From positions 1,463,061 through 1,527,060 of the forward strand of contig NZ_JAODIW010000006.1 of the NCBI RefSeq assembly GCF_026586625.1: a DNA stretch of 64,000 nucleotides. Reading direction: 5' to 3'. Source of the DNA: Halobium salinum. Lineage in GTDB: Archaea; Halobacteriota; Halobacteria; Halobacteriales; Haloferacaceae. The notes beneath the pieces were generated by a model that was given only the letters and a program-made list of their open reading frames with translations, had not been told where the DNA came from and did no database searches. Below, one piece after another: positions 4,801-30,722 of the stretch; positions within the stretch are counted from its first letter, which is position 1, and every line of letters starts with the position of its first letter. Position numbers and translations under genes: made by a program.

Positions 4801-5217
4801 TTGAGTATAGCTACAATCCAGAGTCAGGCCATGAAAGGTCCATTGCAGACCCTGGCTGAGAGGAGTAGAGGGGCGAAAGAGCCCGATACGAACGGTAGAA
4901 GTGCTGTCTACCAGGAGATCACGCATCTGGTAGCAGGTGCAGCAGGTTTTGTCCTTTCTCAGAGCCCTGTGCTGGCCCAGTCCGGTAGCGGGACGGGAGA
5001 CCTCCAGCAGATCGTGGACTTACTGAATAGGATCAGCCAGTTGCTGGAGAGCGTTGGCCTGGCGGCCGCGGTCGTCGGCATGGCCGCAGCGGGAATCATG
5101 TACATCATGCACAAACCGGGGGCGGCGAAGAGCATCGGAAAGTCGACGATCATTGGCGTCATCATCCTGCTTTCGGCAGGAGCCGCCATCCAGTTCATCT
5201 CCCAACCGCTCAGCTAA
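4801..5217 (+). CDS. VirB2/TrbC-like pilin of the type IV secretion (conjugation) system
   Basis: The 138-residue protein has a long N-terminal region ending FVLSQSPVLAQSG (a plausible processing region), then two hydrophobic helices (about 80-100 and 112-132). They are separated by a short positive loop (HKPGAAKSIGKS). This is the layout of VirB2/TrbC pilins. It is the first gene of an operon of VirB6-, VirB4- and VirD4-like genes. The start is uncertain: TTG 4801 lies directly after an inverted repeat, and an ATG at 4831 is also possible. Expected role: subunit of the mating pilus or of a membrane pore component. Confidence 0.7.
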   Translation: MSIATIQSQAMKGPLQTLAERSRGAKEPDTNGRSAVYQEITHLVAGAAGFVLSQSPVLAQSGSGTGDLQQIVDLLNRISQLLESVGLAAAVVGMAAAGIMYIMHKPGAAKSIGKSTIIGVIILLSAGAAIQFISQPLS

Positions 5218-5239
5218 ACGCCTTCATAGAGTTCCAACA

Positions 5240-6307
5240 GTGCCTCACGAATCTGACGACACGCCGGAGGCGGAGAGCGGAGGTGAGTCAAGCGGAGGGC
5301 CGGAGATCGAAGTCATCGACATCGACGAATTAGTGGACGATCTGCTGGACGGTCTTGAGGACTTGTTGCAGGAGGTGGTCGGCGAGACCGTTGATGAGGT
5401 GTTGAAAGCGCTAATCTTGGATCCAGTCCGGTTCCTGTTGACTCAATTGTTCCAGATCTTGCCGCAGATCCTAATGCATACGCCCAACGTCCATCCGAAC
5501 TCTGCGGTTCAGGAAGTCCACGGGGAATTGATGCCGGTTGCTCTCGGGTTCGCTACGGTAGCAGCCACCGCGACCGGTCTGCTCTACATCACCGACGGGG
5601 TGTTCCCGCTGGTCAGTTACGAGAAGCTACGGGCCACGCTTCCCCGGATAGTCATCGCGGTCGGGTTCGCGGCCGTCTCTCTCCCGGTGCTGCAGCTGTC
5701 GGTCGATTTGACGAATGCGTTGACTCAGGGCTTCGCTCCTGACAAGCTGATGTTCACGGAGACAGAACTATCCTCGGTTACGTTTCAGCTGATTATCCTG
5801 CTCGCGGCGAAAGCCGTGCTGCTGCTGGTGCTGATCGTTGCGTTCGCGATCAGAAACGTCTACCTGCTGTTCGTCGCGGCAATCAGCCCCTTGATCGCAG
5901 TTGCCTGGGCGTTCCCGACCAGCCGGAAGTACGCGGATGCGTTCATCAGTGGGTGGTGGACGGCATTAGCTATGGCTCCATTGGATATGCTGGTGCTGAA
6001 GTTCGGCTTGGCTCTCGCCGGTAGCTCGGGGAGCATTCAGGCCCTCGAGAACTGGGTGTACAGCTTGGCGGCGTTCACGCTGATGCTGCTGGTTCCCTAT
6101 CACCTGTACGGAGCCTCTCAGGCTGCGATCGGACAGGCGTACATTCTGAGCAATGGGGTAAAACGTAGCGCTCGGAGGCAGGTTCGGGATTTCAGATCCA
6201 GCGGTAGCTCCCGTATGGATCACTCGATGAGGCGGAGTTCCCGGTTCGGCGGTGAGAGTGGATCGAACAAGTTTGGTGATTTCGACTGGTCGGAGAACGA
6301 TGACTAA
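5240..6307 (+). CDS. VirB6/TrbL-like polytopic membrane protein
   Basis: The GTG start at 5240 lies 22 bases after the pilin stop; the frame also runs upstream inside the pilin gene but is implausible there. The 355-residue product begins with an acidic cytoplasmic region, then a hydrophobic core of at least six helices. These include LLYITDGVFPLV, VLLLVLIVAFAI and a W-rich segment (SGWWTALAMAPLDML). It ends in a basic, serine-rich tail. This is the topology of VirB6/TrbL inner-membrane channel proteins. The downstream VirB4 gene starts inside its last codons (8-base overlap). Confidence 0.75.
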   Translation: MPHESDDTPEAESGGESSGGPEIEVIDIDELVDDLLDGLEDLLQEVVGETVDEVLKALILDPVRFLLTQLFQILPQILMHTPNVHPNSAVQEVHGELMPVALGFATVAATATGLLYITDGVFPLVSYEKLRATLPRIVIAVGFAAVSLPVLQLSVDLTNALTQGFAPDKLMFTETELSSVTFQLIILLAAKAVLLLVLIVAFAIRNVYLLFVAAISPLIAVAWAFPTSRKYADAFISGWWTALAMAPLDMLVLKFGLALAGSSGSIQALENWVYSLAAFTLMLLVPYHLYGASQAAIGQAYILSNGVKRSARRQVRDFRSSGSSRMDHSMRRSSRFGGESGSNKFGDFDWSENDD

Positions 6308-8507
6308 GGATACCGTTCAAACCGGGATGCCCAGCCGACTGAATACTCCTATCCGGTTTTTCGGTTATTTCACGCCGAAGGACATCATCAGGATGGGAGT
6401 GCCGGCAGCTGCAGCTCACGCAGTTGTGCAGACAGCGCCGCCGGTTCATCCTGGTCTCGTGTATGGTGCAGCCGGTCTAATAGGGTTAGCGTGGTGGAGG
6501 CTACGGCCGTACAGGCAGACCCTGGACAACCTGATCGGAAACTTTGTGCGGTACCTCGGTGAATCACGCGGCTCTATCGAGGTTGAGGGCCGGGAACTCG
6601 GTTATTTCTCCGGTGCTGATAGCGCTCTAACCGCAGTCCTTGAGGTTGATCCGACGCACCTGGAGATGCAGAAACCGGGGCGGCAGAAGGCTCTACGAGC
6701 GACGTACCGGGATATATTCAAATCGGTTGATCATCCCGTGCACGTCTACTCGTGTCAACAGGATCTTGATCTCGATGACTACCGAGAGTACGTTGAGGAG
6801 AAGGCCACGGGTCATGGGGAACTGCAGGAGAGCTACAGCAGGTACGTGGATTCGCTCTCCGACCGTGGACTGACGGCGACTACTCACTACGTCGTAATCC
6901 GAGTTGAGAAGGGTAAAACCGGCTGGCTGTCGAGCTGGGTTCCTGATACCATCCGTAATCGAGTCGGTGATGATAATGAGCAGGACCATTGTAGTCAGGT
7001 CTCGGGGCTTATCCGGCGGTGCAAGCATCTACGCACCGAGTTAGAGGCCGCAGGTCTGAACGTCGATGGACTGGCTGGAGACCAACTTGAGGAATTCGTT
7101 GAGACGAATAGCCACAGCTTCTCGACCGGGGTAACGTGGACTCAGAAGGCTGGTAGCGACGCGGATGGGTACCGGAAGTCGGTCTACGTCCACGAGTTCG
7201 CGAACAACGTTCCGCTGGGATGGCCGCTGTCTATGCTCCGTATCGACGGCAAGGTCGATGTCACCCAGGTCATCGAGCCTCGGAAGACTGGGGACGCTGT
7301 GAAGACGTTGGAGAAGCTGAAGCGGAAGCAGGACGCTGAGCTCTCTACCCACATCTCGAACGGCCGCAGCACCAGCAAATTGCGGCGGATAGGCGAGGAA
7401 ATCGATCAGATTCAGGATCTGCTGGCGAAACAGGAGGACGTTGTCGTTGATTACGAGGCAGTTTTGACTGCCCATAGCGAGGACAAGCAGGAATGTCGCG
7501 AGACGTTCGAGAGGCTGGTCCGGCGGTTGGACACGCTTCAGATTGACTACCGGCAGCCGGTTACCCGGACCGATCTTGCGGCGAGGACTGAGAACCCGTT
7601 GACCGGTGACCCGCTTGATGAGTCGCTGCTGATGCCCGGTATCTCAGCGGCGGCAGGGTTCCCGTTCGCCACTCACGGGATTGAGGATATTGGGGTTGTC
7701 TACGGAGTTGATAGCAGCGACCGAACGCCGGTCGTTCTCGATAGATGGGGCTGGAAAAGTCATTCAATGGCTCGGATGGGAGTAACCGGTTCTGGGAAGT
7801 CGTACGCCGCGAAGCTGGAGCTGCTCCGACTCTTGCTCGTGCATCCAAATCTGCAGGTGTACGCGGTTGATCCGAAGCAGGAATACGCTGCGTTGATCAA
7901 TTACCTCGGCGGTACTGCGCAGACTCTCGGGAGTGACACCGAGTACAGTTTCGACTCGGATTACGCCGTGTTGGTCCCCGAGGACCGTGGTGATCTGGAG
8001 AGCGTTGAGCACATGGTTGACGGGTTGAAGCAGATGTACTCGGCTGCCAGCCGTGACGACCGAAAGACCCTGATCCTGATCGACGAGGCGAAGCGGCTGT
8101 TGGAGCATGAGGCCGGCCGCCACGCGTTCAACCAGTTTGTCTTGGAGGCGCGTGATACGAACACGGCGATTACGGCGATCAGTCAGAGTGCCCGACACTT
8201 CACCGACTACCGGGAGGGTAGGGACATCCTCGACAACATGCCGGGGAAGGTGCTGATGAACCACGATAACGTCACGGAGTCGATGCGTGACTACTTCGAT
8301 CTCTCTCAGCAGGAGGCTCAGAAGATTCAGGGCCTTGCCACAGGGGACGATGCACCGTACAGCGAGTCCCTGCTGAAAGTCTCGGATCAGGTTGACGCCA
8401 AGCTCCGAGTTCAATCTACCGACAAAGAGCACGACCTGATCATCAGTGCATCGGAGGCCCGTAGAACCGTTTCAGATTCATCCGCCGCTACCATCAGAAA
8501 CCAATGA
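6300..8507 (+). CDS. virB4: VirB4-like conjugation ATPase with N-terminal VirB3/PrgI-like membrane hairpin
   Basis: The protein has 735 residues. Residues 1-75 hold TPIRFFGYFTPKDIIRMGVP followed by hydrophobic stretches, as in PrgI/VirB3 proteins, so this appears to be a VirB3-VirB4 fusion. The ATPase core has Walker A GVTGSGKS at 494-501 and Walker B LILIDEA near 591-597, followed by a typical ISQSARHF strand-loop. VirB4 proteins power pilus assembly and substrate transfer at the inner membrane. ATG 6300 overlaps the VirB6 gene by 8 bases, and the 3' end overlaps the next gene by ATGA. Confidence 0.9.
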   Translation: MTKDTVQTGMPSRLNTPIRFFGYFTPKDIIRMGVPAAAAHAVVQTAPPVHPGLVYGAAGLIGLAWWRLRPYRQTLDNLIGNFVRYLGESRGSIEVEGRELGYFSGADSALTAVLEVDPTHLEMQKPGRQKALRATYRDIFKSVDHPVHVYSCQQDLDLDDYREYVEEKATGHGELQESYSRYVDSLSDRGLTATTHYVVIRVEKGKTGWLSSWVPDTIRNRVGDDNEQDHCSQVSGLIRRCKHLRTELEAAGLNVDGLAGDQLEEFVETNSHSFSTGVTWTQKAGSDADGYRKSVYVHEFANNVPLGWPLSMLRIDGKVDVTQVIEPRKTGDAVKTLEKLKRKQDAELSTHISNGRSTSKLRRIGEEIDQIQDLLAKQEDVVVDYEAVLTAHSEDKQECRETFERLVRRLDTLQIDYRQPVTRTDLAARTENPLTGDPLDESLLMPGISAAAGFPFATHGIEDIGVVYGVDSSDRTPVVLDRWGWKSHSMARMGVTGSGKSYAAKLELLRLLLVHPNLQVYAVDPKQEYAALINYLGGTAQTLGSDTEYSFDSDYAVLVPEDRGDLESVEHMVDGLKQMYSAASRDDRKTLILIDEAKRLLEHEAGRHAFNQFVLEARDTNTAITAISQSARHFTDYREGRDILDNMPGKVLMNHDNVTESMRDYFDLSQQEAQKIQGLATGDDAPYSESLLKVSDQVDAKLRVQSTDKEHDLIISASEARRTVSDSSAATIRNQ

Positions 8508-9469
8508 AAATTCGGAAGTCTCAGATCACGGCATCAGAGGAACAGGCTCAGCAACTCCAGCACAGCAACAAAGGCTGGTACAGCATCCAGGTCCGGCCAC
8601 CACGTGAGACTCCGCCAGCTCGACTTGACTCAGTAATTAGAGGAGCGACCGAGGCCAGTACAAAATGGTTCGGCCTGCGAAATGCGTCGCCGGTCATCGC
8701 TTACGAGATCCGGCGGCATCGACCAGGGCAGCTCCAATTCCAGTTCAGCACCCCTTCAGTTCGACTGGACCGAAAGCTTCGTAACCACCTCACAGATGCG
8801 GCTTCAACGACCGAAATCCAGGAAAGCAGTACCAATGGCCTGCCTGTCTTTGAGGATGAGACTATTGGCGTCGGCCAGGCTGAGCTGTTGAGGAGGGACT
8901 GGAACCCGTTGGAGACGGATTTCGATAGCCCGCCGGTGAACAAGCTGGTGGGTTCTCTTCACCAGAACGCAATGCAGGACACGAAGTTCGTCGTCCAACT
9001 CCTATTCCAACCGGTTGCAGGTCACCCAGTCCGACGGAGATGGAGTCGGCGGGAGGCGTTCAACCGAGGCCGGAAGCTCCGAAACAAGAAGCAGCTGTTG
9101 GTCGGTGAACGGACCGCAACTCCACTGGAGAAGAAACGTGCGAAGCTGCTTGAGGAGAAAGCCGCCGGACCATTGTACAACGTCCGGCTTAGAGTCGTAG
9201 CTATTGGGGCGGGTGAGTACACCGGTAGTCGGATTCGGGAGCTTGCAGGATGCTTCAACCAGTACAATCACTCAGAATCACGTCAGAAGCTCGGAGTCAA
9301 ACGTTTCAAATCGGTTCGTTCAGTGTCGATTTTCCGGCTGCTGAAAGCGGTGAGGGACCGTCAGCTGTCTGACCTTGATGCTGGGTTTCGAGCGTCTGTG
9401 GAGGAGGTGGGAGCGCTCGCATCGCTTCCCGACCGCAGTCAGTCGAATATCGTGGAGGCCCGTCCATGA
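8504..9469 (+). CDS. Coupling-protein companion, resembling N-terminal domains fused to VirD4-like ATPases
   Basis: The 321-residue soluble protein lies between virB4 and the coupling-protein gene, with ATGA overlaps on both sides. The segment LYNVRLRVVAIGAGEYTGSR followed by RELAGCFNQYNH resembles a strand-helix unit that precedes the ATPase in longer VirD4/TraG-like proteins. Since the next gene lacks that region and has no membrane anchor, I infer that the two polypeptides together form one coupling protein. A large basic middle (RRRWSRREAFNRGRKLRNKK) could contact DNA. Confidence 0.6.
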   Translation: MKIRKSQITASEEQAQQLQHSNKGWYSIQVRPPRETPPARLDSVIRGATEASTKWFGLRNASPVIAYEIRRHRPGQLQFQFSTPSVRLDRKLRNHLTDAASTTEIQESSTNGLPVFEDETIGVGQAELLRRDWNPLETDFDSPPVNKLVGSLHQNAMQDTKFVVQLLFQPVAGHPVRRRWSRREAFNRGRKLRNKKQLLVGERTATPLEKKRAKLLEEKAAGPLYNVRLRVVAIGAGEYTGSRIRELAGCFNQYNHSESRQKLGVKRFKSVRSVSIFRLLKAVRDRQLSDLDAGFRASVEEVGALASLPDRSQSNIVEARP

Positions 9470-11400
9470 AACCTGAAGATACCAAGCTGCTCGTGAAATC
9501 CTCGAAGAATAGTAATACCACCTACCTCGGTGTCCGCACCGATCAGGGATACGAGTCGGATATCGGTATTGACGATCCTCAACGGCTGAAGCACACGCTT
9601 GAAATCGGTGCTACCGGTACCGGAAAGTCCGCGGAAATGATGCACGCCGCGCTCCAAGACGCCGAGAAAGGCCACGGCTTCACCCTGATTAATCCGAAAG
9701 GTGATCTGATCAAGGAGCTTGTAGCTAAACTACCTGAGGACCGGCTGGACGACATCATCTACGTCAATCCCGCTGGCAAGAGCATTCCCGGCATCAACGT
9801 CTTGAAATCAGACAGCGCAGACAATCTCACCGAGCAGCAGAAGAATACTCAGCAAGGCCTGGTTGTCTCCTATCTAATCGGTTTGTTCAAGCGTCAGAGC
9901 GAGAACTGGGGTGACCGGTTCGGTCGTATCTTGGAGACGCTGCTTCGGGCGACTATCAATCAGAATCTGAAACACGATGAGGAGTACACTCTGCTGGATG
10001 TCTTCCGATGTATTACTGAGCAGGAGGCGCTCCAGGAACTGATCGACAAAGTGGAGGACCCGGTTGTTCGTGAACAGCTGAAAACGGTGCGTGACGACTA
10101 CGGGAAGAACGAGCTCGAGCCATTGCAGCGTCGGCTGAACGACTTCGTGATGGACTCCACTATCCGCGAAATCATTTCAGCTAAGCAATCGTCGGTCAAT
10201 TTCAAGCAGGCTGTTGAGGACGAGAAGATCATTCTCGTCGAGATTCAGAAGGGAGAAATCGGGAAACAGGTCTCCCAGTTAGTCGGCAGCTTGGTAATCA
10301 CAAAAATATGGGCGTCGATTCAGAGCAGGGTGAGTATGCCAGCAGAAGAGCGGGAGCCGTACTTCCTGTACGTCGATGAGCTGGATAACTTCGCCAGCGA
10401 GGGATCCGGGTTCGACGAGATCCTATCCGAGGGCCGCGAGTACAGGTTCGGGTTCTGGGGCGCAGTCCAATATATCGATCAGCTGCCGAAGCCGATGCGG
10501 CAGGCCGTTACTGGGAACTGCCGGACTAAGCTGGTGTTCGATCCTGCGGAGAGCGAGGATTTGACGAAGCTGTCGCGGATGCTCCGCGATGTGTCAAAAG
10601 AGGAGCTGCAGTCACTTGGTGACTACCGCGCAGCAGTGTCGAAGCCCAGCAGCAACGGTTCTCGAAAGGAGATGGCGTTTATCAAGACCCTGCCTCCGTG
10701 GCCGGCAGACCGTAGCCGTGACAAGGTGAAGCAGGTGCTCCGAGAGCAAAGTGCTTCGAGCGGTCGGACCAGTCATACCGAACTGGAGCAGTCTCTGGGC
10801 AGCAGTGCGAACGCTGGCGGGGAGAAACACCGGGAGCTACTAATTCAGGCGAAGGAGCAGTTGCAGCAACGTGACCTGGTGGGACGTGTGTCGCTCCTGG
10901 ATCAGCCGGAGGGAACGGAGAGACCGGACGGCCGAATAATCGATACAAGCGGTGAGACGGTCGGGTTCCTGGAGGCAGAGCACGGCACTCTGAGTCGGCC
11001 GGTCAAGATACTTCGGAATCTTGAGCGCGGTCTCGAAGCCGGTGTCGAAGTGTTCTACGTGGTTGAGGAAGGTAACCAGGCGAAGCTGGAGAATATAGTC
11101 TCTGACCCCGTCAATCGACGAGGAGACACGCATGAGGATGGGCAGGGCAGCTTTGATTACTACACTGATGAAGATGGAGATCCGCTTACTGATGTTGAGC
11201 GACTAGCGGACGCTGAGTACCGGGTGCTTGAAATCCGAGAAGACGATCTCGTTGAACATACGGATGGCGTAGATATTGAGTGCCCGGAGCTCGGCGAGTT
11301 CAGCGAAGAGGAATTAGAGGAGTACTGCATTCACCGTGAAGACGGTTATTGTAGCGCTCTCGGTCAGCCGTGTGTTCTTCTGGAAGGTGAAAGCGGATGA
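9466..11400 (+). CDS. virD4: VirD4/TraG-like type IV coupling ATPase with nuclease-like C-terminal region
   Basis: The protein has 644 residues. Walker A GATGTGKS is at 48-55, followed by TLINPKGDLI, the signature strand of DNA-pumping ATPases. Walker B is in YFLYVDELDNF, followed by a glutamine sensor strand (GAVQYIDQLPK). It therefore belongs to the VirD4/TraD family that feeds DNA to the secretion channel. There is no N-terminal membrane anchor. Beyond about residue 480 a separate region contains RPDGRIID and, 10-15 residues on, FLEAEHG. This Asp...Glu-x-Glu arrangement resembles PD-(D/E)XK nucleases. The C-terminus is acidic with three Cys residues (possible metal site). Confidence 0.88.
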   Translation: MKPEDTKLLVKSSKNSNTTYLGVRTDQGYESDIGIDDPQRLKHTLEIGATGTGKSAEMMHAALQDAEKGHGFTLINPKGDLIKELVAKLPEDRLDDIIYVNPAGKSIPGINVLKSDSADNLTEQQKNTQQGLVVSYLIGLFKRQSENWGDRFGRILETLLRATINQNLKHDEEYTLLDVFRCITEQEALQELIDKVEDPVVREQLKTVRDDYGKNELEPLQRRLNDFVMDSTIREIISAKQSSVNFKQAVEDEKIILVEIQKGEIGKQVSQLVGSLVITKIWASIQSRVSMPAEEREPYFLYVDELDNFASEGSGFDEILSEGREYRFGFWGAVQYIDQLPKPMRQAVTGNCRTKLVFDPAESEDLTKLSRMLRDVSKEELQSLGDYRAAVSKPSSNGSRKEMAFIKTLPPWPADRSRDKVKQVLREQSASSGRTSHTELEQSLGSSANAGGEKHRELLIQAKEQLQQRDLVGRVSLLDQPEGTERPDGRIIDTSGETVGFLEAEHGTLSRPVKILRNLERGLEAGVEVFYVVEEGNQAKLENIVSDPVNRRGDTHEDGQGSFDYYTDEDGDPLTDVERLADAEYRVLEIREDDLVEHTDGVDIECPELGEFSEEELEEYCIHREDGYCSALGQPCVLLEGESG

Positions 11401-12568: not shown

Positions 12569-12967
12569 TTAGCTCCCCTTATTTTGACGTCGTCTCTCAA
12601 TCTCGTCAAGTACCTCCTGGGGGATGATCTCCGGGTTCTCGATAAGGAATTCTTGTAGTTCGGTGAGGTCTTGGAACATTCGGTCCAGCTGTTCGAGTAG
12701 CTGATAGACTTTCTCTCCTTTCTCGGTGAACTGGTATTCTTTCCCGGAGACCTCTACTAGGTCAGCTTCTTTGAAGTCGGTGAGATATGGTTGGATAGCG
12801 CTTCGAGTCACATCTAGTTCGTCTGCGATATCTTTCGGAGCGGTGTCACTGTGGAGTTTGTTGAAGGTGTGAACTCGGTTTGGAGTATCCAGCGCAGATA
12901 AGATCTGGGCGACTTCCTCAGGGTGCTCAATACTCATTATCAGCTTGAGACAGGTTTCTCGGTCCAT
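12569..12967 (-). CDS. ArsR-like winged-helix transcriptional regulator
   Basis: The ATG at 12967 gives 132 residues. It shows an ArsR-type order: LSALDTPNRVHTFNKL, PKDIADELDVTRSAIQPYL (recognition helix), wing KEYQFTEKGEKV, and a helical dimerisation tail (LLEQLDRMFQDLTELQEFL). The frame also runs upstream to 13105, but that would translate through a TATA-like box and a palindrome. The perfect palindrome directly before the start suggests autorepression. It lies between the transfer operon and the ESCRT-like operon, so it may control either. Confidence 0.82.
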   Translation of the reverse strand: MDRETCLKLIMSIEHPEEVAQILSALDTPNRVHTFNKLHSDTAPKDIADELDVTRSAIQPYLTDFKEADLVEVSGKEYQFTEKGEKVYQLLEQLDRMFQDLTELQEFLIENPEIIPQEVLDEIERRRQNKGS

Positions 12968-13262: not shown

Positions 13263-13646
13263 ATGCAAATAGCTGAAGCCATGTTTCAGACCCAGCTGCT
13301 TCCAGTCACCGAGAACGGATTCCTACCTGAAATACTGGTAACGCTCGGAATCCACGGATTCGCAGGATTCGCTGGAATGCTCCTGGTCTATGGAGCGATG
13401 GAACGCCATTACGGCCTCGGAGTATTGACCGCAGTCCTCGGAATCGGTGTGTTCGGGTTTGGAGAGTACTGGCACCTGCAGAACCCGCCACCAGTTGTGT
13501 ACGACCTGGTTCAGCACCCAGAAGTCTACATGATCATCTCGTTCTGCGGAGTGCTACTTGGGGTATTCACAGTCTTCCTCGCAGTAGAACCCGAATTTAG
13601 CCGTCACACCCCCGAAAAGCCATCTGATAGTGAGATCAACCTATGA
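13263..13646 (+). CDS. Three-TM membrane protein heading the ESCRT-III/Vps4-like operon
   Basis: The 127-residue protein has three hydrophobic helices (about 27-46, 51-67 and 90-108), a short GEYWHLQNPPP loop and an acidic cytoplasmic tail. The family is not recognised. Its stop overlaps the start of the ESCRT-III-like gene by ATGA, so the two are coupled. A membrane partner or recruiter for the cytoplasmic filament protein is a natural inference but unproven. A second in-frame ATG at 13281 is an alternative start. Confidence 0.65.
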   Translation: MQIAEAMFQTQLLPVTENGFLPEILVTLGIHGFAGFAGMLLVYGAMERHYGLGVLTAVLGIGVFGFGEYWHLQNPPPVVYDLVQHPEVYMIISFCGVLLGVFTVFLAVEPEFSRHTPEKPSDSEINL

Positions 13647-14347
13647 AGTTCCGAAAACAGCTCCGCGAAAGCATTGGACTATTGAAAAGGCCGAACGGTG
13701 TGTTCGGCACGCGGTACACGCTCGAAGATATCGACACCGAACTGGATCATAGGGATAAGGTGATTAAGAAGGTCGAGCGGAAGGCGGACAAGCATCATCG
13801 ACAGAAGAAGAAGTACTTGCAGAAGGCCGTGGAGTCGAAGAATCAGCGGAAGCTGAGGTACGTTGCGAAGGCGAAAGAGGCGGAGATGCACAAATCGTTC
13901 TTCTCAGAGCTGTTCGATAATCTGATGGCTCAACAATTGTTTCTCACCAAGCTGAGTCTGAAGGCGAAGGAAAAGCGGATCTTCGACTCCCCGATGGAGG
14001 AGTTCGGCTTCGAGATCGATATCGGAGGCATGAACGCGGACGCTATCTCTAACGCCTTGCAGAGTTCGTCGTTCAATCAGGACGAGATCGGACAGACCAT
14101 GGAGGAGATCCAGATGGAGTTCGACATGATGGACGACTCCACCGGCATCAGCCTTGACCTGGATGACATTAAGAAAGAGGCCGAGATGCTGGAGGCCGAA
14201 GATATCCGATCGGACAGCTTCGAGCTCGGCGGCGATCTCAACTCTGCGATCGATGACCAGATCGAAAAGGAGCTGAATAACCTGGAAGCCGGAGGTAGTG
14301 CAGGCAGTTCTCCCGGGGAAGAAGGCCCTCCGACTGCCAATGACTGA
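13643..14347 (+). CDS. ESCRT-III (Snf7/CdvB)-like protein with MIM1-like tail
   Basis: The protein has 234 residues. A long, strongly basic helical region (about 30-113, rich in Lys/Arg) is followed by a short helix NQDEIGQTMEEIQMEF (145-160). A markedly acidic C-terminal region (170-216) ends in a disordered Gly/Ser/Pro tail. This charge and helix layout is that of Snf7/CdvB proteins, where the basic hairpin binds membrane and polymerises and the acidic tail autoinhibits. Residues 204-214 (D-xx-I-xx-EL-xx-L) fit the MIM1 pattern (D/E)xxLxxRLxxL except that Glu replaces Arg. It is directly followed by MIT-like and Vps4-like genes. An unrelated coiled coil is the main alternative. Confidence 0.55.
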   Translation: MKFRKQLRESIGLLKRPNGVFGTRYTLEDIDTELDHRDKVIKKVERKADKHHRQKKKYLQKAVESKNQRKLRYVAKAKEAEMHKSFFSELFDNLMAQQLFLTKLSLKAKEKRIFDSPMEEFGFEIDIGGMNADAISNALQSSSFNQDEIGQTMEEIQMEFDMMDDSTGISLDLDDIKKEAEMLEAEDIRSDSFELGGDLNSAIDDQIEKELNNLEAGGSAGSSPGEEGPPTAND

Positions 14348-14597
14348 ATCAAGCCGTGAACGGGTTGCAGAGATGAAGAAATCCGCCGACCGGTATGAAG
14401 GCCGGGGAGACCGATTGCAGAGATCTGATCCAGAACGTGCTCAGTACTGCTATAGCTGGGCCTCCCGGTTGAACAGCTATCTCGCCGGGAAGGAATCTAC
14501 CGATACTACGTACCGGATGAAGCAGAAGCGGCGTATAGACGAGAAGGCTGAGAGGGTTAGACGCCGCCAAGAACTGTTCGGAGGTGAGAAGAGGTGA
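14340..14597 (+). CDS. Small MIT-like helical protein
   Basis: The ATG at 14340 overlaps the ESCRT-III-like gene by 8 bases and gives 85 residues; the frame also runs upstream to 14298 but that adds an implausible leader. It is an all-helical, basic protein. RERVAEMKKSADRYEGRGDR followed by PERAQYCYSWASRLNSYLAG has the helix-turn-helix spacing of a MIT domain (A-x-x-Y-x-x-A type), like the N-terminus of the next ATPase. It could be an adaptor between filament and ATPase. The assignment rests mainly on context. Confidence 0.5.
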   Translation: MTESSRERVAEMKKSADRYEGRGDRLQRSDPERAQYCYSWASRLNSYLAGKESTDTTYRMKQKRRIDEKAERVRRRQELFGGEKR

Positions 14598-15733
14598 TGA
14601 GCGAAGAGGCGATGGAGATCCTGGAAGAACAGCTTGACGAGCACAAGATGGAAGCCCAGAAAGCACTAGGAGAAAACCCGAAGAGAGCAGCATTCCATTT
14701 CTCGAAGGCCGCTGAAATCCACGAGAGGCTTGCCAGCGAAGTACAGGGCCAACAAGTTGTGAAGGCCCACCTCTGCCAAGCAGACGATCTCAGAGCCAAC
14801 TCGCACCGTCTAATGCAGAGAATGGGGCTCATCGAGACAGAAACCCCCGACCCTACTGAAAACGATAGCGAGAAGAATACCGGAGACCAGTCTTCTTCGA
14901 ATCAAAATCCATCTACGTCTGATTCAAAGTTTTTCGACGATGTTCCTGATGTCGATCTCAGCGATGTCGGCGGGATGGAGGAGCTGAAGCAGGAACTCAT
15001 CGAGGACGTGAAGATGCCGCTGGAGAAGCCAGATTTCTACCGGAAACAGGCAATAGGCATGGAAAACGGAATCCTGTTCTTTGGTCCCCCGGGTACAGGG
15101 AAAAGCTATCTCGCGGAGTGTTTCGCGGGCGAACTCGGATTCGACTATGCTGAGATCAGTGCCAGCGATATCACCTCGAAATACGTTGGCGAGGCACCGA
15201 AGACAGTGCGGAAGCTGTTCGATGAGGCCCGAAGTCGTGAACCCTGCGTTGTATTCATCGACGAAATCGATTCATTGGCTTCCGACCGATCCACCGGTAA
15301 CAGGAAGACACAGACGGAGCGACAGATCGTCAACGAACTCCTCACCCAGCTACAAGATATCCAGGGCAGCCAAATCTTGGTGATCGCGGCCACAAACAGA
15401 ATCGAGGACCTTGACTCGGCGATCACTCGTACTGGTCGCTTCAACAAAAAGTTCCATCTCGGACCGCCGAACCGCGATGCACGAAAACAGATTCTCAAAG
15501 TCCAACTGGAGGAGGACGAGCGTGAAGTTGACTGGGAAGGTATCGACTGGGAGAAACTGGTTGACTGGAGCCAAGGCTACTCGGCTTCTGACTTAGAGGG
15601 CGTAGTCAAAGATGCAACTCGGCAGTCAGCCCTCGAATCCACAAAGAAAGGATCGATGGTACCGGTACAGTATCGGCATCTGCTCGGAGCGATGAAGGAC
15701 ACAGAAGCATCGCTAAAACACAATGAATCGTAG
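14597..15733 (+). CDS. Vps4/CdvC-like AAA ATPase with N-terminal MIT-like domain
   Basis: The protein has 378 residues; ATG 14597 overlaps the previous stop as TGATG (a GTG at 14594 is the alternative). Residues 1-80 form three amphipathic helices, the middle one NPKRAAFHFSKAAEIHERL, as in MIT domains. A Ser/Asn/Asp linker follows. The AAA core opens with VDLSDVGGMEELKQEL. It has Walker A GPPGTGKS at 163-170, pore loop SKYVGEAPK, Walker B VVFIDEID at 218-225, an Arg-finger region with RTGRF, and YSASDLEGVVKDA. The domain order matches Vps4/katanin-type ATPases, which disassemble ESCRT-III polymers. The RTGRF variant is closer to Cdc48-type modules, so exact clade placement needs a tree. Confidence 0.82.
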   Translation: MSEEAMEILEEQLDEHKMEAQKALGENPKRAAFHFSKAAEIHERLASEVQGQQVVKAHLCQADDLRANSHRLMQRMGLIETETPDPTENDSEKNTGDQSSSNQNPSTSDSKFFDDVPDVDLSDVGGMEELKQELIEDVKMPLEKPDFYRKQAIGMENGILFFGPPGTGKSYLAECFAGELGFDYAEISASDITSKYVGEAPKTVRKLFDEARSREPCVVFIDEIDSLASDRSTGNRKTQTERQIVNELLTQLQDIQGSQILVIAATNRIEDLDSAITRTGRFNKKFHLGPPNRDARKQILKVQLEEDEREVDWEGIDWEKLVDWSQGYSASDLEGVVKDATRQSALESTKKGSMVPVQYRHLLGAMKDTEASLKHNES

Positions 15734-15766
15734 CTCTGAATGGGTTGAAACGGAGGTGGACTTGTG

Positions 15767-15934
15767 ATGAGCCGGACCAAATACGTCGAGCTCGAATGCC
15801 CGAACTGCGGCCGCCACCAACCACTGAACCAGATAGAGTTCGACTCAATCAACTGCCTCGACTGTGACACCCAGCTCAAGACCAGTGAAAACGTCTCTGC
15901 TCTTCTCGAGAGAAAGCCGTTTGACCTACTCTAA
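15767..15934 (+). CDS. 55-residue zinc-ribbon protein closing the ESCRT-like operon
   Basis: The ATG at 15767 is preceded by a good ribosome-binding site (GGAGGTG, 15752-15758). The product has two CxxC knuckles (CPNCG at about 11-15 and CLDCD at about 30-34) and ends FDLL. It lies 33 bases after the Vps4-like gene and before a T-tract. Such tiny zinc ribbons are common haloarchaeal accessory proteins. The function is unknown. Confidence 0.65.
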   Translation: MSRTKYVELECPNCGRHQPLNQIEFDSINCLDCDTQLKTSENVSALLERKPFDLL

Positions 15935-23734: not shown

Positions 23735-25186
23735 ATGGATATTCTGGCGTTCTCTGACTGGCGTGTACAGCCGATCGATGATCTATACAGATTAGTTGAG
23801 TCGATCAATACGAATCTGGATCTAATACTCTACAGTGGTGACGATCTCAGCCGGTTTGTTGAGGAGGGTTCTAACTATCTCGATGAGTTAGCAGATCGAG
23901 CTGGTGCAGATCTCGGCTTCGTCCGTGGAAACGACGATCTTCCGGCAGCTGTAGGCCCTGAGCTTGAGACTGATCGCGTTCACGATTTGCACCGAAATCC
24001 GTACCAGCATGGCAATTACGTAGTAGTTGGTCAGGAAGGAGCGATCGGGTCTGAGGCGATCGGACCGCTCACTTACTCAGAGCAAGAGGTTCGAGAACAT
24101 CTCCGAGAGTTCTCTGAGAGCTACCAGAGGAAGCGTATAATTCTCGTGACTCACACACCTCCGTACGGTATTCTTGATATCGGACAGCGATTCGGGGAGC
24201 GACACCTTGGTTCGAAAGCAGTCTACGAGTTCATAGAGTCAATGAGTCCAGAGCTCACCGTCTGCGGGCATGTACACCAGTTCGGCGGACAGACCGAGTT
24301 CAGTAAGTTCGGACCTATTGTCAATGTGGCTTCGCACGACGACCCGAATGCTGACGGACGGTTCGCGACAATCCAATTATCGAGCATCCGATCAGAGATC
24401 AACCACTCTACTATCAATCAGCGGCTCGCGGACCCTCTGACTAAACTCAATCAGGTGGGAAATTCCCGTGCAAAACTTCTGCGTGAAGCCGGCTTCGAAG
24501 AACTCAGACAATTCACACGGGATCGACGTGAAGAACTCCTGAGAATCGACCACGTCTGGGAGGATATAGCTGACAAAATACTCATCCACGCCGAAGCCTA
24601 CCGAACAGGCCAGCCTCTTGTGGTCACACCAGAGCCGTTCGCTGCTCTACAGAGCCGTAAGCCCGTACTGGTCGATATCGAAACCAATCTGAGGCAAGAT
24701 CGGATTTGGCTTATCGGAGCATACAGCTACCGAGATGTGGAATTCACCCAGTTTCTTGAACCCGATGACGAAGCAGGGCTCTGCAAATCATTCTACGAAT
24801 ATCTTCAAGCCCAGAGCCAGCCAGTTGTAGCATACTATGCTGGTCAGGGATTCGACGAACGGATCCTGCAGGACCGAATGGAATCTCACGACATCAATCT
24901 ATCCGACGTAGTTGAAGAATGGGTGGATGTCTGCCCGATCGCCCGGAAGAATATCTTCGTTCCAGCCCCCAGCCATCGCCTCTCCACAATAGCAACCAGT
25001 CTCAACTACGAATTCACCTACCCCGATATCTCAGGATTCGAGATTGGGGGCGCGTACTCAAGATATCTCACAAGCGGCGAGCCCCCGGACTGGGAAAAGT
25101 ATCAGGAGTACAACCGCGACGACGTAATGGCACTCAAACATATCCTCAGCGCAGCCGCCGCGGACAATACGAACCCGTCAGATTAG
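23735..25186 (+). CDS. Metallophosphoesterase fused to a YprB/DnaQ-like RNase H-fold domain
   Basis: The protein has 483 residues. Residues 1-215 carry calcineurin-type motifs in order: FSDW, SGDD, GNDD, VTHTPP and CGHVHQFGG. A helical linker with helix-hairpin-helix character (KLLREAGFEELRQF) follows. Residues 305-475 carry D314-x-E316 (VDIET), then YYAGQGFDERIL, and YNRDDVMALKHIL. These are the acidic residues of RNase H-like 3'-5' exonucleases of the YprB type. Fusing a phosphoesterase to an exonuclease suggests nucleic-acid repair or defence. It converges on the recombinase gene, overlapping its 3' end by four bases. Confidence 0.8.
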   Translation: MDILAFSDWRVQPIDDLYRLVESINTNLDLILYSGDDLSRFVEEGSNYLDELADRAGADLGFVRGNDDLPAAVGPELETDRVHDLHRNPYQHGNYVVVGQEGAIGSEAIGPLTYSEQEVREHLREFSESYQRKRIILVTHTPPYGILDIGQRFGERHLGSKAVYEFIESMSPELTVCGHVHQFGGQTEFSKFGPIVNVASHDDPNADGRFATIQLSSIRSEINHSTINQRLADPLTKLNQVGNSRAKLLREAGFEELRQFTRDRREELLRIDHVWEDIADKILIHAEAYRTGQPLVVTPEPFAALQSRKPVLVDIETNLRQDRIWLIGAYSYRDVEFTQFLEPDDEAGLCKSFYEYLQAQSQPVVAYYAGQGFDERILQDRMESHDINLSDVVEEWVDVCPIARKNIFVPAPSHRLSTIATSLNYEFTYPDISGFEIGGAYSRYLTSGEPPDWEKYQEYNRDDVMALKHILSAAAADNTNPSD

Positions 25187-26418
25187 ATTTGATCCAGCTT
25201 CTCCAATACACCCTTCTCTTCGAGTTCGACGAGTCTGTCTATGACCTCTTGTTTCGACCTCTGCTCGTTCTTTTGTTGGAGGCTGAGTGGTCTGCCGCAG
25301 TTCCCGCATTCCGAGTGGTGTGATTGGTTTGTTTGACCACAGAAAGGACAGTCCACAGTCTCTGATTCGTTGTTATCGGTGTTGAGACCGTATTCTTGTC
25401 GGATGGCTTGGTTGACGTCGTCGTTGTTGAGGTGGACGTAGACTTTCGCCCTATCACTACCTGGTTTCCAGCCTGCAAACTTATTCAATTGCTCGTAGCC
25501 CATGAACTTCGCTACCTCGGTCAAACGGGTGTGCCGGAGGTTGTACGGCCGCTGCTTGTTCTCAGGGATTTCAGCGCGTTCACACGCATCCTTGAACCGT
25601 CGACGTAACGCATCGTAGTTCATCCGGTCACGAGGATTCGGAACGTACTCCGTGCAATCATCGGTGTGGTTATGCGGTATGTTGCCACAGTTCTTACACG
25701 CCTGTTGCTCTCGTTTCACGAACAAGGGCGCAGACGAGTCCTCGATATCGCCCATGGTTCCTCCAACAGGGTGTTCAAGCAGCCATTCTCGGAGTGTTCT
25801 TCCGGCCCGGATCAACTGGTTCGTGCGATCAGGTGTTCCTTTGAGTCCCTGGAGGAAGATGAAGTCGCCTTTGCCGTTCGAGGTGAAGTCGGCGATGCTG
25901 GTATTGATGATTTCTCCGGGTCTTCCGCCTGATTCGTACATCAGTTTGAAGAACGCCCGGTCACGTGTGCTTCGGAAGCCCTGAAACAAGCTTTTGAGTT
26001 CTTCTTCGGTGAAGAGGTCGTTTCGTGTGACGGGTGAGGCCTTAGCGCCTTTCTTGTGGACTGAGAAGAACTCGACCTTCTCAGGGTGTTTCCCGCCGTT
26101 TTCGATCTTGTAGAACTTCTTCACCGCGCAACGGAACTTGTGCTTCGATGCTTCGGCGTAGTCGCTCCGGTTAACACGGGCGATCACGGTCTTCAGCTCA
26201 GATTCAGTGGCTCCCCGTAGTTCGAAGTCGTCTGGAGCGAATTTCTTCAGCAGGGTCTTGAAGGCGTAGATCATCCGGACCTGCTGGGAATTCCCGACTC
26301 CTTCCGCAGCTGAGGCATCGATATAGGTCTCTACCGCCTCGATGTTTCCCTGGGAAATGGGTTCGTCTCGTAGATTTTGAAGACTGCGCTGTACGTCGTC
26401 GTACTTTGTGGTTGACAT
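25183..26418 (-). CDS. int: Tyrosine recombinase/integrase with C-terminal zinc ribbon
   Basis: ATG 26418 gives 411 residues; the frame continues upstream but without recognisable sequence. An N-terminal SAM-like core-binding domain (about 1-125) precedes the catalytic domain. The catalytic residues are R166 (SGGRPGEI), the NLRHTRL box near 293, W/H position FAGWKPG near 315, and nucleophile YVHL near 327. A zinc ribbon (CPFCG...CGNCG, about 357-374) follows. An internal CKNC...H...C cluster near 240-255 is an unusual extra metal site. It is a candidate integrase of the element, although it lies 30 kb from the tRNA-Glu scar and could belong to a nested unit. Confidence 0.9.
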   Translation of the reverse strand: MSTTKYDDVQRSLQNLRDEPISQGNIEAVETYIDASAAEGVGNSQQVRMIYAFKTLLKKFAPDDFELRGATESELKTVIARVNRSDYAEASKHKFRCAVKKFYKIENGGKHPEKVEFFSVHKKGAKASPVTRNDLFTEEELKSLFQGFRSTRDRAFFKLMYESGGRPGEIINTSIADFTSNGKGDFIFLQGLKGTPDRTNQLIRAGRTLREWLLEHPVGGTMGDIEDSSAPLFVKREQQACKNCGNIPHNHTDDCTEYVPNPRDRMNYDALRRRFKDACERAEIPENKQRPYNLRHTRLTEVAKFMGYEQLNKFAGWKPGSDRAKVYVHLNNDDVNQAIRQEYGLNTDNNESETVDCPFCGQTNQSHHSECGNCGRPLSLQQKNEQRSKQEVIDRLVELEEKGVLEKLDQI

Positions 26419-26490
26419 AATTCTTTGATTCAGTAGTTGGTTGGAGAAATCGAGCGGGGAAAACAAGGATTCGTTTGGTAGTCGGTGACC

Positions 26491-26518
26491 ACCGTTCACT
26501 TGGAGTCCAGTGAACGGT
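26491..26518. repeat. Strong inverted repeat upstream of the integrase gene
   Basis: Perfect 10-base arms ACCGTTCACT and AGTGAACGGT flank an 8-base loop (TGGAGTCC), 73 bases upstream of the integrase ATG. A TATA-like gtaaataac on the minus strand lies just beyond (about 26,546-26,554), so the repeat would fall at the start of the integrase transcript. It could be a recombinase arm site, an operator or a leader hairpin. Confidence 0.5.
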
Positions 26519-26946: not shown

Positions 26947-27639
26947 ATGCGACTACCGATATATCTACTAAGTATGACCGAGACTGGCCGCAATGAATAC
27001 GAAAGAATAGACAATACGTACGGATTCGGTCAGCAAGAGTATCAACAGCGGAGTCAATTACACGACCAAGCATGTAATAGAAAAAACTCGTTGTTTTGGA
27101 CCTACAAGCGGATGTTCGTTGCCGCGGAATGGGTCGGACGATTTGGATGGGGTCTCGACCTGTTTACGGCAATCATCGGGTCCGTATTACTCTACGCGTT
27201 GACTCGAGAAGGATCTCCTACAAATCAGCTTCTCAATTCCCTAATAGAATTCGCTCCAGCGGATTTAGCAATCATCATCTTGGTCGGATCTCTCTTGAGT
27301 GCTTTCTACGGGCCGAAACTACGATCTAGAGTCTATTACAATGCGGGACAAGAGATTCAAGAGCTGCACGACCAGCTGGATGACTTCATCGAGATGGAGA
27401 TTATTGACCAAGAATCGGAATTTGATGATTTGAAACAGAAGTACCAGCGCTTGAACCGAAGGAGGCACCGTCTGAACCAATCGACACCTCAATTAGGCGG
27501 GTATTGGTATCGATTGATGAAGGCCAAAGAGAAGTACCAAAAGACCGTCCCTTGGGAGGAGTATTCCGAATATGAGGAGGAAACATTCGAAGAAAAAATC
27601 AAGCGGCTAAACGGAGAAGGTAGTGAAAATGATAGCTGA
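26947..27639 (+). CDS. SLATT-domain two-TM membrane protein (first copy)
   Basis: The 230-residue protein has an N-terminal helix ending LFWTYKRMFVAAEW. Two transmembrane helices follow (about 70-88 and 98-118), then a long cytoplasmic helical region (QEIQELHDQLDDFIE, YQRLNRRRHRLNQSTPQLG). This is the pattern of SLATT domains (SMODS/SLOG-associated two-TM effectors), thought to form pores when a nucleotide signal is made. A CD-NTase-like gene lies 2 kb downstream. ATG 26974 is an alternative start. Confidence 0.7.
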   Translation: MRLPIYLLSMTETGRNEYERIDNTYGFGQQEYQQRSQLHDQACNRKNSLFWTYKRMFVAAEWVGRFGWGLDLFTAIIGSVLLYALTREGSPTNQLLNSLIEFAPADLAIIILVGSLLSAFYGPKLRSRVYYNAGQEIQELHDQLDDFIEMEIIDQESEFDDLKQKYQRLNRRRHRLNQSTPQLGGYWYRLMKAKEKYQKTVPWEEYSEYEEETFEEKIKRLNGEGSENDS

Positions 27640-27749
27640 GGATAACATTATATGATAAACGCTATCGCACTACGTCGAAAATTTCTTCACATCTACCGAA
27701 ATCTGCCACACATATTATGACTTTCACACGGTGAGTGGGTTTGTCACAC

Positions 27750-28640
27750 TTAATTTCTTCTAAAATGTGTCTCTACCCAGAGTTCACCTATTGTTGAGAG
27801 CCGGGTTTCGTGGCCACCGCTCTTCTCAGTTCTACGGATATAGCCCTCATCCTCGAGCTGTCTCACATTGTACTGGACCTTACTCCGCAGAGACTGGTAC
27901 TTCTCTTCGCGTTGCTCCGCCAACAGACGTGCTAAAGCTGAGGTCGAAGAAGCTGGCCCATTTTCATAGAGACAGTATAGAATCTCCCGCTCAAACTCTC
28001 GTAGATCGGATAGCGGCGCTGCCGGGAATTCTACGAACATCTGTCCATTACCTAATCGGCTTGCGCCCTTCGTCACTCCGCTTTGGTCAACCTCCTCAAG
28101 TAGAGTATCGACCGCTTGAAGTCGATCCTGGATTCTGTCATCGTTATAATCTTCACCCAGTTCCTGAAGCATCTGTTTCTGCTCGCGTAGCTCCCCAATC
28201 ATCTCAGTAACCAGATACTCCTCAGGTGAGACATAGTACGTGTGAATAGATTCACGGAGTTCAGGGCGCTCTACGATCAGAGAATTAGCCGCAGTAGCGA
28301 ACGCAAACGCGACCGTCCTAGGCATTGACGAAATATTCACCCAGACATCATTCCCGCTGTCAACCTCCTCCCTGATTTGACGATGAGCTTCTCGATAGAG
28401 GCTCTTGTAGTCGTAGATGTCTTTGACCGGCTGGATTTCAACTTCCTTCCCGAGTACAGTCCGAAAAGTATGCTCAAGCCGGTCAACCATTGTCTCGATA
28501 ACTGCCTCGGCGGATTCACCGCTATCCTCTGAGGATTGAAGGAGTAGAATTCGGTCCGCTTCTAAACCCCCTTGGGAGATAGGTAGTAGCAGTCGTTCGT
28601 AGTCGAATCCGACCGGAATTATATGAACGGTCTCACTCAT
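27750..28640 (-). CDS. CARF-wHTH regulator, HFX_2341-like
   Basis: ATG 28640 gives 296 residues starting SETVHIIPVGFDYERLL. The N-terminal Rossmann-like CARF domain (1-150) ends with WVNISSMPRTVAFAFATAA, the ligand-loop strand and helix of this family. The C-terminal winged helix (about 225-296, EREILYCLYENGPASSTSAL and a wing) binds DNA. CARF domains sense cyclic oligonucleotides. It diverges from a gene pair containing a CD-NTase-like enzyme, so it may respond to that enzyme's product. Confidence 0.8.
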   Translation of the reverse strand: MSETVHIIPVGFDYERLLLPISQGGLEADRILLLQSSEDSGESAEAVIETMVDRLEHTFRTVLGKEVEIQPVKDIYDYKSLYREAHRQIREEVDSGNDVWVNISSMPRTVAFAFATAANSLIVERPELRESIHTYYVSPEEYLVTEMIGELREQKQMLQELGEDYNDDRIQDRLQAVDTLLEEVDQSGVTKGASRLGNGQMFVEFPAAPLSDLREFEREILYCLYENGPASSTSALARLLAEQREEKYQSLRSKVQYNVRQLEDEGYIRRTEKSGGHETRLSTIGELWVETHFRRN

Positions 28641-28820
28641 CGAGCTATCTTCCCTTCCACTCCCGACTAAGCCATCAATTGAGGTAAAAGGATTCGGAAC
28701 CGGGCCTACTGACAAACTATTTTGCTCACACTCAGGTTTTGGCCGACCTAGAGCAAACACTTAAGTTTCCGTGTCTGTTTTGTTTACGCGTACGGGAGAC
28801 GTGCGAAAACACAGAACAAC

Positions 28821-29645
28821 ATGATCCCCAACGAATCACACCCGGGATCCAACCCCGCAGAGCTCAACGAGAAGAATAGCGGCCTGATTCTGCTTGCTGA
28901 AAGGCAGAACGCCCACGAGGAGTTCATCGAGGGCTACCCAGGACAGCTCACGATCGTGCTCCGGATCAACCACGTGCAGACGCTGCTGAACAAGGACCAC
29001 ACCGCGGAGTCATTCTACGGCCCAGATGTGACAGTAATCACCACAACAACCGTTTCCGACCAAGTCCTTGCAGATCTCACCTGGGAGAAGGAGCGGGATT
29101 TGATTCAGCGGTTCAACCCTGACTACCATGTCCCGTGTGACTATCCGGTCTACAAGTCAGATGACGGTGGTCGACGAAGAGACCATGTCGAGAACTATCT
29201 CAGAGGTTTGCTCTGGCTCTCTCCTCGACTACAGAGAGTCGAGCTAATCCCGCTAGTCAAGGGGGAGACACCTGACGAGCGTCTTCGATGTTACAAGGTC
29301 TTCCAGAGCCTTGGCGCTGGTTACGTAGTGTTCTACGGTACGCAGTACTTCACGTCGAGGAAAGGTTTCAAGCCGCTGCGGCAGGACATCTGCCAGGTCG
29401 TTTCCGAGCAGCCGGATCTCAACATCATGCTGTTCGGTCTGCAGTCACCTCGACTCCTTCGGAAGCTGCCGCCTCAGGTCGTCGCGGCAGTAGGTCGGCG
29501 CTGGATTGGCGAGATACAGCTTCGTGACCGTTCAGTCGTTGAGAACAATTCACTTTACGATAGCATGAAAGAGAACGTTGAATCAGAGCTGGGTCAGGGT
29601 CAGATGCCTCTCGGTGTTTGGAGCTCGACGGAGGTGATGGCGTGA
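28821..29645 (+). CDS. Conserved-looking protein of the CBASS-like operon, perhaps TGT-barrel-like (DUF6610 type)
   Basis: The 274-residue soluble alpha/beta protein contains IPLVKGETPDERLRCYKVF, then LGAGYVVFYGTQYF, then LNIMLFGLQSPRLLRKL. These successive strand-helix units recall the C-terminal half of TIM-barrel tRNA-guanine transglycosylase-like (DpdA-type) proteins. No zinc or catalytic Asp signature is certain. Its last codon overlaps the nucleotidyltransferase start (TGATG), so the two are tightly coupled. It could be a CBASS accessory protein. Confidence 0.6.
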   Translation: MIPNESHPGSNPAELNEKNSGLILLAERQNAHEEFIEGYPGQLTIVLRINHVQTLLNKDHTAESFYGPDVTVITTTTVSDQVLADLTWEKERDLIQRFNPDYHVPCDYPVYKSDDGGRRRDHVENYLRGLLWLSPRLQRVELIPLVKGETPDERLRCYKVFQSLGAGYVVFYGTQYFTSRKGFKPLRQDICQVVSEQPDLNIMLFGLQSPRLLRKLPPQVVAAVGRRWIGEIQLRDRSVVENNSLYDSMKENVESELGQGQMPLGVWSSTEVMA

Positions 29646-30697: not shown

Positions 30698-30722
30698 GCC
30701 CGTACAGAGAGGCGATGAAGGG

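What the first reader, a model, noticed from the sequence alone, without database searches (positions are those of the whole stretch)
13263..15934. Mobile ESCRT-III/Vps4-like membrane-remodelling operon in a haloarchaeon
Five genes in a tight, overlapping operon: a 3-TM protein; a basic-then-acidic helical protein with Snf7/CdvB layout and a MIM1-like D-xx-I-xx-EL-xx-L at residues 204-214; a small MIT-like protein; a Vps4-like AAA ATPase with its own N-terminal MIT-like domain; and a zinc ribbon. Established knowledge: Vps4/CdvC disassembles ESCRT-III polymers through MIT-MIM contacts, and haloarchaea divide with FtsZ rather than the Cdv system. Inference: this is an element-borne membrane-scission system. 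It sits right behind a conjugation operon, so it might seal mating bridges, bud DNA-containing vesicles or protect the envelope. The ATPase is secure, the ESCRT-III assignment moderate.
Basis: partly seen in the sequence, partly recalled or inferred. Interest (0 to 1): 0.9.

Follow-up and report, generated by a model that had tools for sequence, protein, structure and literature searches.

The report
Mobile mini-ESCRT cargo in haloarchaea
Salt-loving archaea carry, as cargo on integrating mobile DNA, a three-gene set (membrane anchor, ESCRT-III-like protein, Vps4-like motor) that is a cut-down copy of a membrane-remodelling system known from haloarchaeal chromosomes; what the element gains from it is not yet known.

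Summary
The five-gene operon is real (13263-15934). Its core is TM protein, ESCRT-III-like protein, Vps4-like AAA ATPase. I found the same triad in seven other haloarchaeal genomes. ESCRT is not foreign to haloarchaea: the triad is homologous to the core of the 'Main' ESCRT loci described in 2024 (profile-profile E 1.4e-15; the small TM gene also precedes ESCRT-III in ten of those loci). It lacks that clade's partner genes (arCOG08177/09748, kinase, phosphatase). The ATPase has a confidently modelled N-terminal three-helix bundle, a flexible linker and intact AAA motifs. A MIM1-like C-terminal motif occurs in 7 of 8 mobile ESCRT-III proteins and 1 of 13 chromosomal ones. Six of the eight triads lie on integrative elements: four within 12 kb of a distinctive conjugation coupling gene, two on elements sharing backbone genes. 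Twenty relatives of that conjugation locus lack the triad, so it is accessory cargo, not part of the transfer machine; one near-identical backbone lacks it. The Snf7 hairpin was not demonstrated (single-sequence model, low confidence), the 85-aa 'MIT-like' protein is weakly supported, and the zinc ribbon is window-specific. Function (defence, dissemination or envelope repair) is undecided.

The parts
13263..13646 (+). small membrane protein, three hydrophobic segments, probable membrane anchor of the system
   Evidence: hydropathy; homologues directly upstream of ESCRT-III in all mobile loci and in 10 chromosomal Main-type loci
13643..14347 (+). ESCRT-III-like helical protein, basic first half, acidic second half
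   Evidence: homologous to haloarchaeal Main-clade ESCRT-III: hhalign A4 v A8 prob 98.6%, E 1.4e-15; A4 profile hits G211 ESCRT-III 1.3e-13; charge layout; single-sequence AF2 model low confidence
14252..14284 (+). MIM1-like motif D-D-Q-I-E-K-E-L-N-N-L (residues 204-214)
   Evidence: conserved as [VIL]D..[ILF]..[ED][LY] in 7 of 8 mobile homologues, 1 of 13 Main
14340..14597 (+). 85-aa helical protein, weakly MIT-like; only in this locus
   Evidence: hhalign to MIT alignment A9: prob 32%, E 5e-4
14597..15733 (+). Vps4-like AAA ATPase (MIT-type bundle, linker, AAA)
   Evidence: AAA 1e-41; AF2 pLDDT 82, helices 3-23/28-48/52-75, linker 82-110 under 50, then AAA; tree with Main Vps4
14597..14836 (+). 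N-terminal MIT-type three-helix bundle of the ATPase
   Evidence: profile A9 against PDB: archaeal Vps4/CdvC MIT entries 2w2u (0.017), 2v6y (0.17), 4lcb (0.28) among the listed hits, below significance
15767..15934 (+). zinc-ribbon protein, 55 aa, window-specific
   Evidence: weak matches to several Zn-ribbon families; no homologue found in the other mobile loci (blastp)
12569..12967 (-). divergent winged-helix/coiled-coil gene; element backbone regulator rather than an ESCRT part
   Evidence: PF25213 2e-11; a related wH occurs in G070 at the same backbone position without the triad
9466..11400 (+). TraG/TrwB-like conjugation coupling protein (context)
   Evidence: TraG-D_C 7e-7; close subfamily in 27 of 391 haloarchaeal genomes
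4831..8507 (+). VirB2-like pilin, membrane protein, VirB4-like ATPase (context)
   Evidence: TrbC/VIRB2 1e-8, AAA_10 1e-7, DUF87
25183..26499 (-). tyrosine integrase (context; the element may extend further)
   Evidence: Phage_integrase 8e-13

Best explanation
A minimal, mobile ESCRT module: TM anchor + ESCRT-III-like polymer + Vps4-like disassembly motor, derived from the core of the haloarchaeal 'Main' ESCRT system and carried as optional cargo on integrative (often conjugative) elements. Shown: homology, conserved gene order, MIT-linker-AAA architecture, conserved MIM1-like tail, element context, accessory status. Inferred: the TM protein recruits the ESCRT-III-like protein to the inner face of the membrane, it assembles there, and the ATPase binds the MIM1-like tails through its MIT bundle and pulls subunits out, constricting or renewing the coat. 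Inferred and weaker: it acts as a stand-alone membrane-remodelling or sealing device benefiting the element or its host, most likely at virus-damaged, virus-budding or mating-damaged membrane; the cargo slot is shared with defence systems.
For: Triad in 8 genomes of 3 families. ESCRT-III homology to Main clade E 1.4e-15; TM gene shared with 10 Main loci, partner genes arCOG08177/09748/STK/STP not found in the window or the mobile loci. ATPase model, AAA motifs intact in the window protein, grouped with Main Vps4 away from Cdc48/PAN (87/86 for the branch; Cdc48+PAN 100/100). MIM1-like tail 7/8 v 1/13. Context: 4 of the 5 triads in an even draw of 391 genomes lie 2.2-11.2 kb from a coupling gene present in only 27 genomes (hypergeometric 9e-5 for shared genome alone); G458, G499 on elements with the same 661-aa gene, wH, LOG-like gene and integrase as triad-free G070 (83/74% identical backbone gene). 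FtsZ intact in five of the hosts.
Against: No hairpin fold shown: the single-sequence model has pLDDT 60, pTM 0.28 and one long helix 27-109. No detectable similarity to Snf7 or to a TACK CdvB. The AAA core scores higher with CDC48 than with CdvC profiles (188.9 v 148.6 bits). The MIM motif pattern was partly defined after seeing the sequences. Monophyly of all mobile ATPases is not supported (AU p 0.062 against one clade). No functional data.
Confidence: 0.7

Rival explanations
1. Anti-viral or superinfection-blocking cargo: the module acts when viruses inject into or bud through the membrane, and is carried because it protects the element's host.
For: It sits in a variable cargo slot of an element family whose other members carry CBASS, Mre11/Rad50/HerA sets and other defence-like ATPases; a CBASS cyclase with 2TM/SLATT-type effector genes lies at 26.9-31.3 kb of the same window; G485's triad lies near TGT and 7-deazaguanine genes.
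Against: No PADLOC model covers the triad; IetA hits are general AAA similarity. Chromosomal Main ESCRT homologues are not known as defence. Slot analysis is not a controlled enrichment test.
Confidence: 0.35
2. Transfer accessory: seals or remodels mating junctions, or buds DNA-carrying vesicles that spread the element.
For: Tight physical link to a conjugation locus in four genomes; Sulfolobales vesicles depend on ESCRT (literature, cited in PMC10936438).
Against: 20 loci with the same coupling gene lack the triad in the stretch read; two triad elements (G458, G499) have no coupling gene in the roughly 13-16 kb read on each side.
Confidence: 0.25
3. Not membrane scission: a membrane-anchored AAA unfoldase with a coiled-coil substrate or adaptor, e.g. 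turning over T4SS or envelope proteins.
For: AAA core closest by profile to CDC48/PAN; other haloarchaeal conjugation-type operons contain a different membrane-anchored AAA ATPase (own genome C12, plasmids); no hairpin shown.
Against: MIT-type bundle plus MIM1-like tail plus homology to published ESCRT-III/Vps4 loci; the T4SS-linked AAA form their own group.
Confidence: 0.2

Closest known systems
Haloarchaeal/euryarchaeal 'Main' ESCRT loci (Makarova et al. 2024, mBio, PMC10936438)
   Same: ESCRT-III followed by Vps4; homologous proteins; same small TM gene upstream (seen here)
   Different: no arCOG08177, arCOG09748, kinase or phosphatase genes; on integrative elements; MIM1-like tail instead of the Main tail; more divergent ATPases
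Thermoplasmata minimal ESCRT (Vps4 + ESCRT-III + beta-barrel arCOG07400)
   Same: three-gene minimal set
   Different: third gene is a TM protein, not a beta-barrel; mobile; hosts keep FtsZ
CdvABC of TACK archaea
   Same: ESCRT-III plus MIT-AAA ATPase
   Different: no CdvA or winged helix on ESCRT-III; not the division machine (FtsZ present, accessory gene set)
Bacterial PspA/Vipp1 membrane-repair proteins
   Same: helical membrane-associated polymer superfamily (by literature, PMC8281802)
   Different: no sequence comparison made here; those have no dedicated MIT-AAA motor (own knowledge)

Membership tests
ESCRT-III | sequence homology to established archaeal ESCRT-III | tested here: met
   A4 v Main ESCRT-III prob 98.6%, E 1.4e-15; Main assignment itself from PMC10936438, locus identity inferred from arCOG08177/09748-like neighbours
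ESCRT-III | match to Snf7 profile or TACK CdvB | tested here: inconclusive
   no Snf7 match, hhalign to CdvB not significant; but Pfam Snf7 reached its cut-off in none of the 14 control genomes, Sulfolobus included
ESCRT-III | alpha1-alpha2 helical hairpin | tested here: inconclusive
   single-sequence AF2, pLDDT 60, one long helix; fold search uninformative
ESCRT-III | C-terminal MIT-interacting motif | tested here: met
   MIM1-like in 7 of 8 mobile copies, with an acidic residue where eukaryotic MIM1 has Arg; binding itself untested
ESCRT-III | membrane-bound polymer | not testable with these tools
   needs biochemistry
Vps4 | N-terminal MIT domain | tested here: met
   three-helix bundle, block pLDDT about 76-95; archaeal Vps4 MIT among sub-threshold PDB hits; not compared fold to fold
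Vps4 | active AAA core | tested here: met
   Walker A/B, sensor 1 and Arg finger present
Vps4 | AAA core nearer to Vps4/CdvC than to Cdc48 | tested here: inconclusive
   CDC48 188.9 bits, CdvC 148.6; groups with Main Vps4 at 87/86; Main G211 shows the same profile ranking
Main ESCRT clade | arCOG09748 and arCOG08177 partners | tested here: not met
   no homologue in the window or in the stretches read around the mobile loci
CdvABC division system | divides the host in place of FtsZ | tested here: not met
   two FtsZ genes each in G000, G035, G173, G458, G499; accessory distribution
IetAS defence | IetA above cut-off with IetS protease partner | tested here: not met
   130 v cut-off 510 bits; no protease gene in the operon

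The most novel reading that the evidence does not exclude
A mobile ESCRT used as a selfish or immune membrane device: the first ESCRT-based cargo on conjugative elements that either blocks virus entry or exit or protects and spreads the element, with an acid-adapted MIM1-MIT contact.
Probability: 0.3. Interest if true: 0.88.

Novelty: new variant of a known kind. Interest (0 to 1): 0.62.

Why it matters
ESCRT is usually treated as cellular housekeeping inherited vertically. A stripped three-gene ESCRT found as element cargo in several haloarchaeal families points to the minimal set that selection keeps, gives a genetically tractable ESCRT (haloarchaea can be manipulated and keep FtsZ, so loss should be viable), and offers a route for ESCRT gene transfer in archaea.

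Tried and rejected
Genome-contig scan with the ATPase returned only general AAA proteins. Viral contigs: no ESCRT-III relative with three different queries; A4 too divergent for pattern search. Plasmids: no ESCRT-III match; the haloarchaeal plasmid ATPase hits that I opened showed no ESCRT-like gene by annotation, and those in conjugation-type loci are a different, membrane-anchored AAA group. Phages: FtsH-type and other AAA only. PDB profile searches for ESCRT-III found only coiled coils. Structure search of the ESCRT-III model uninformative; of the ATPase model dominated by the AAA domain. Idea that the divergent winged-helix gene is an ESCRT-II-like partner rejected: a homologue sits at the same backbone position in G070 without the triad. 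N-terminal amphipathic helix: moment not significant for most members.

Full report
Observation. The first has three hydrophobic segments; the second is basic then acidic with DDQIEKELNNL at 204-214; the fourth is a AAA ATPase. The region lies in contig C11 of G000, a haloarchaeal genome (inferred from its relatives and plasmid matches).

What it is. The ESCRT-III-like protein was searched in haloarchaeal genomes. Strong relatives occur in G035, G069, G173, G332, G458, G485 and G499, each between a small TM gene and a Vps4-like ATPase in the same order. They are rare: 5 of 391 evenly drawn genomes. The profile of the first five also hits the ESCRT-III gene of G211 (1.3e-13), whose locus contains Vps4, genes that look like arCOG08177 and arCOG09748, kinases and a phosphatase: the anatomy of the 'Main' ESCRT clade of Makarova et al. 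2024 (PMC10936438). The arCOG identities are my inference from that description and gene position. A search with G211's protein found 22 genomes with related ESCRT-III genes. Profile against profile the mobile and Main proteins match over about 196 columns (98.6%, 1.4e-15). The small TM gene is also directly upstream of ESCRT-III in ten Main loci. Main partners were not found in the window or in the stretches read around the mobile triads.

ATPase. The N-terminal profile of 14 haloarchaeal ATPases finds, below significance and among designed proteins and TPRs, three archaeal Vps4/CdvC MIT structures. In a tree the mobile and Main ATPases lie on one side of a branch (87/86) from Cdc48, PAN and the T4SS-linked AAA. 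By profile scores alone the AAA core resembles CDC48 more than CdvC, and the Main ATPase of G211 does likewise, so the Vps4 label rests on MIT and neighbourhood, the criteria of PMC10936438. One clade for all eight mobile ATPases is neither supported nor clearly rejected (AU p 0.062).

Tail motif. [VIL]D..[ILF]..[ED][LY] in the last 50 residues occurs in 7 of 8 mobile proteins and 1 of 13 Main proteins; shuffles give it in 0.04-1.6% of tails. The pattern was chosen after seeing the sequences. It matches MIM1 in the hydrophobic positions with an acidic residue at the usual Arg (MIM1 consensus from own knowledge).

Mobility. A close subfamily of the window's coupling protein is in 27 of 391 genomes; four of the five drawn triads lie 2246, 3189, 6184 and 11223 bases from it. 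Twenty fetched stretches next to that coupling gene in other genomes, two of them short, show no ESCRT-III profile hit. G458 and G499 have [661-aa gene][Vps4, ESCRT-III, TM][winged helix][LOG-like][integrase]; G070 has the same backbone (661-aa gene 83 and 74% identical) without the triad. This is the clearest evidence of optional cargo and shows the winged-helix gene belongs to the backbone. G069 and G485 were not tied to this element family. The slot in other members carries CBASS, Mre11/Rad50/HerA-like and other sets; the gene names are partly by eye and there is no control for enrichment.

What is not shown. The hairpin, polymerisation, the MIT-MIM contact and any function. The 85-aa protein is at best weakly MIT-like (32%). 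The zinc ribbon has no counterpart in the other loci.

Mechanism and verdict. Anchor, polymer and motor suffice for a minimal ESCRT cycle: recruitment, assembly, MIM-guided extraction (inference from the known families). Since the hosts tested keep FtsZ and most related elements do without the triad, it is neither a division system nor a needed transfer part. I rank defence or membrane protection slightly above a transfer role, with low confidence. Literature searches in the held library found no report of ESCRT on haloarchaeal integrative elements; that library is incomplete.

Noticed in passing
window 26947-31352: CBASS-like set (oligonucleotide cyclase, TGT-type gene, 2TM/SLATT-like proteins) just past the integrase; the same type of set sits in the cargo slot of another element (L184).
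   Followed up: partly
window 39203-40972: Homologue (45%) of the 661-aa backbone gene of the ESCRT-bearing elements, so the mobile element may reach 41 kb and hold both ESCRT and CBASS cargo.
   Followed up: partly
L002 952-2370 (own genome C12); L123, L125 plasmids: A distinct membrane-anchored AAA ATPase within conjugation-type operons of haloarchaeal chromosomes and plasmids such as pHTUR03.
   Followed up: partly
L181, L185, L183, L188, L197: Different large ATPase or nuclease gene sets (Mre11/Rad50/HerA, SMC-like, 1506-aa protein, PHP-type) occupy the same slot behind the coupling gene: a haloarchaeal cargo hot spot.
   Followed up: partly
L148 11481-11939; L149 7907-8275: Transglutaminase-like gene downstream of the ATPase in G035, and a possible one in G069 (by eye).
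   Followed up: partly
L228 5013-12619: TGT-domain gene with QueC/D/E-like genes (7-deazaguanine pathway) on the same contig within 12 kb of the G485 triad.
   Followed up: partly
window 47236-51279: 1347-aa STAND/NACHT-type protein with weak Dsr1 similarity.
   Followed up: no
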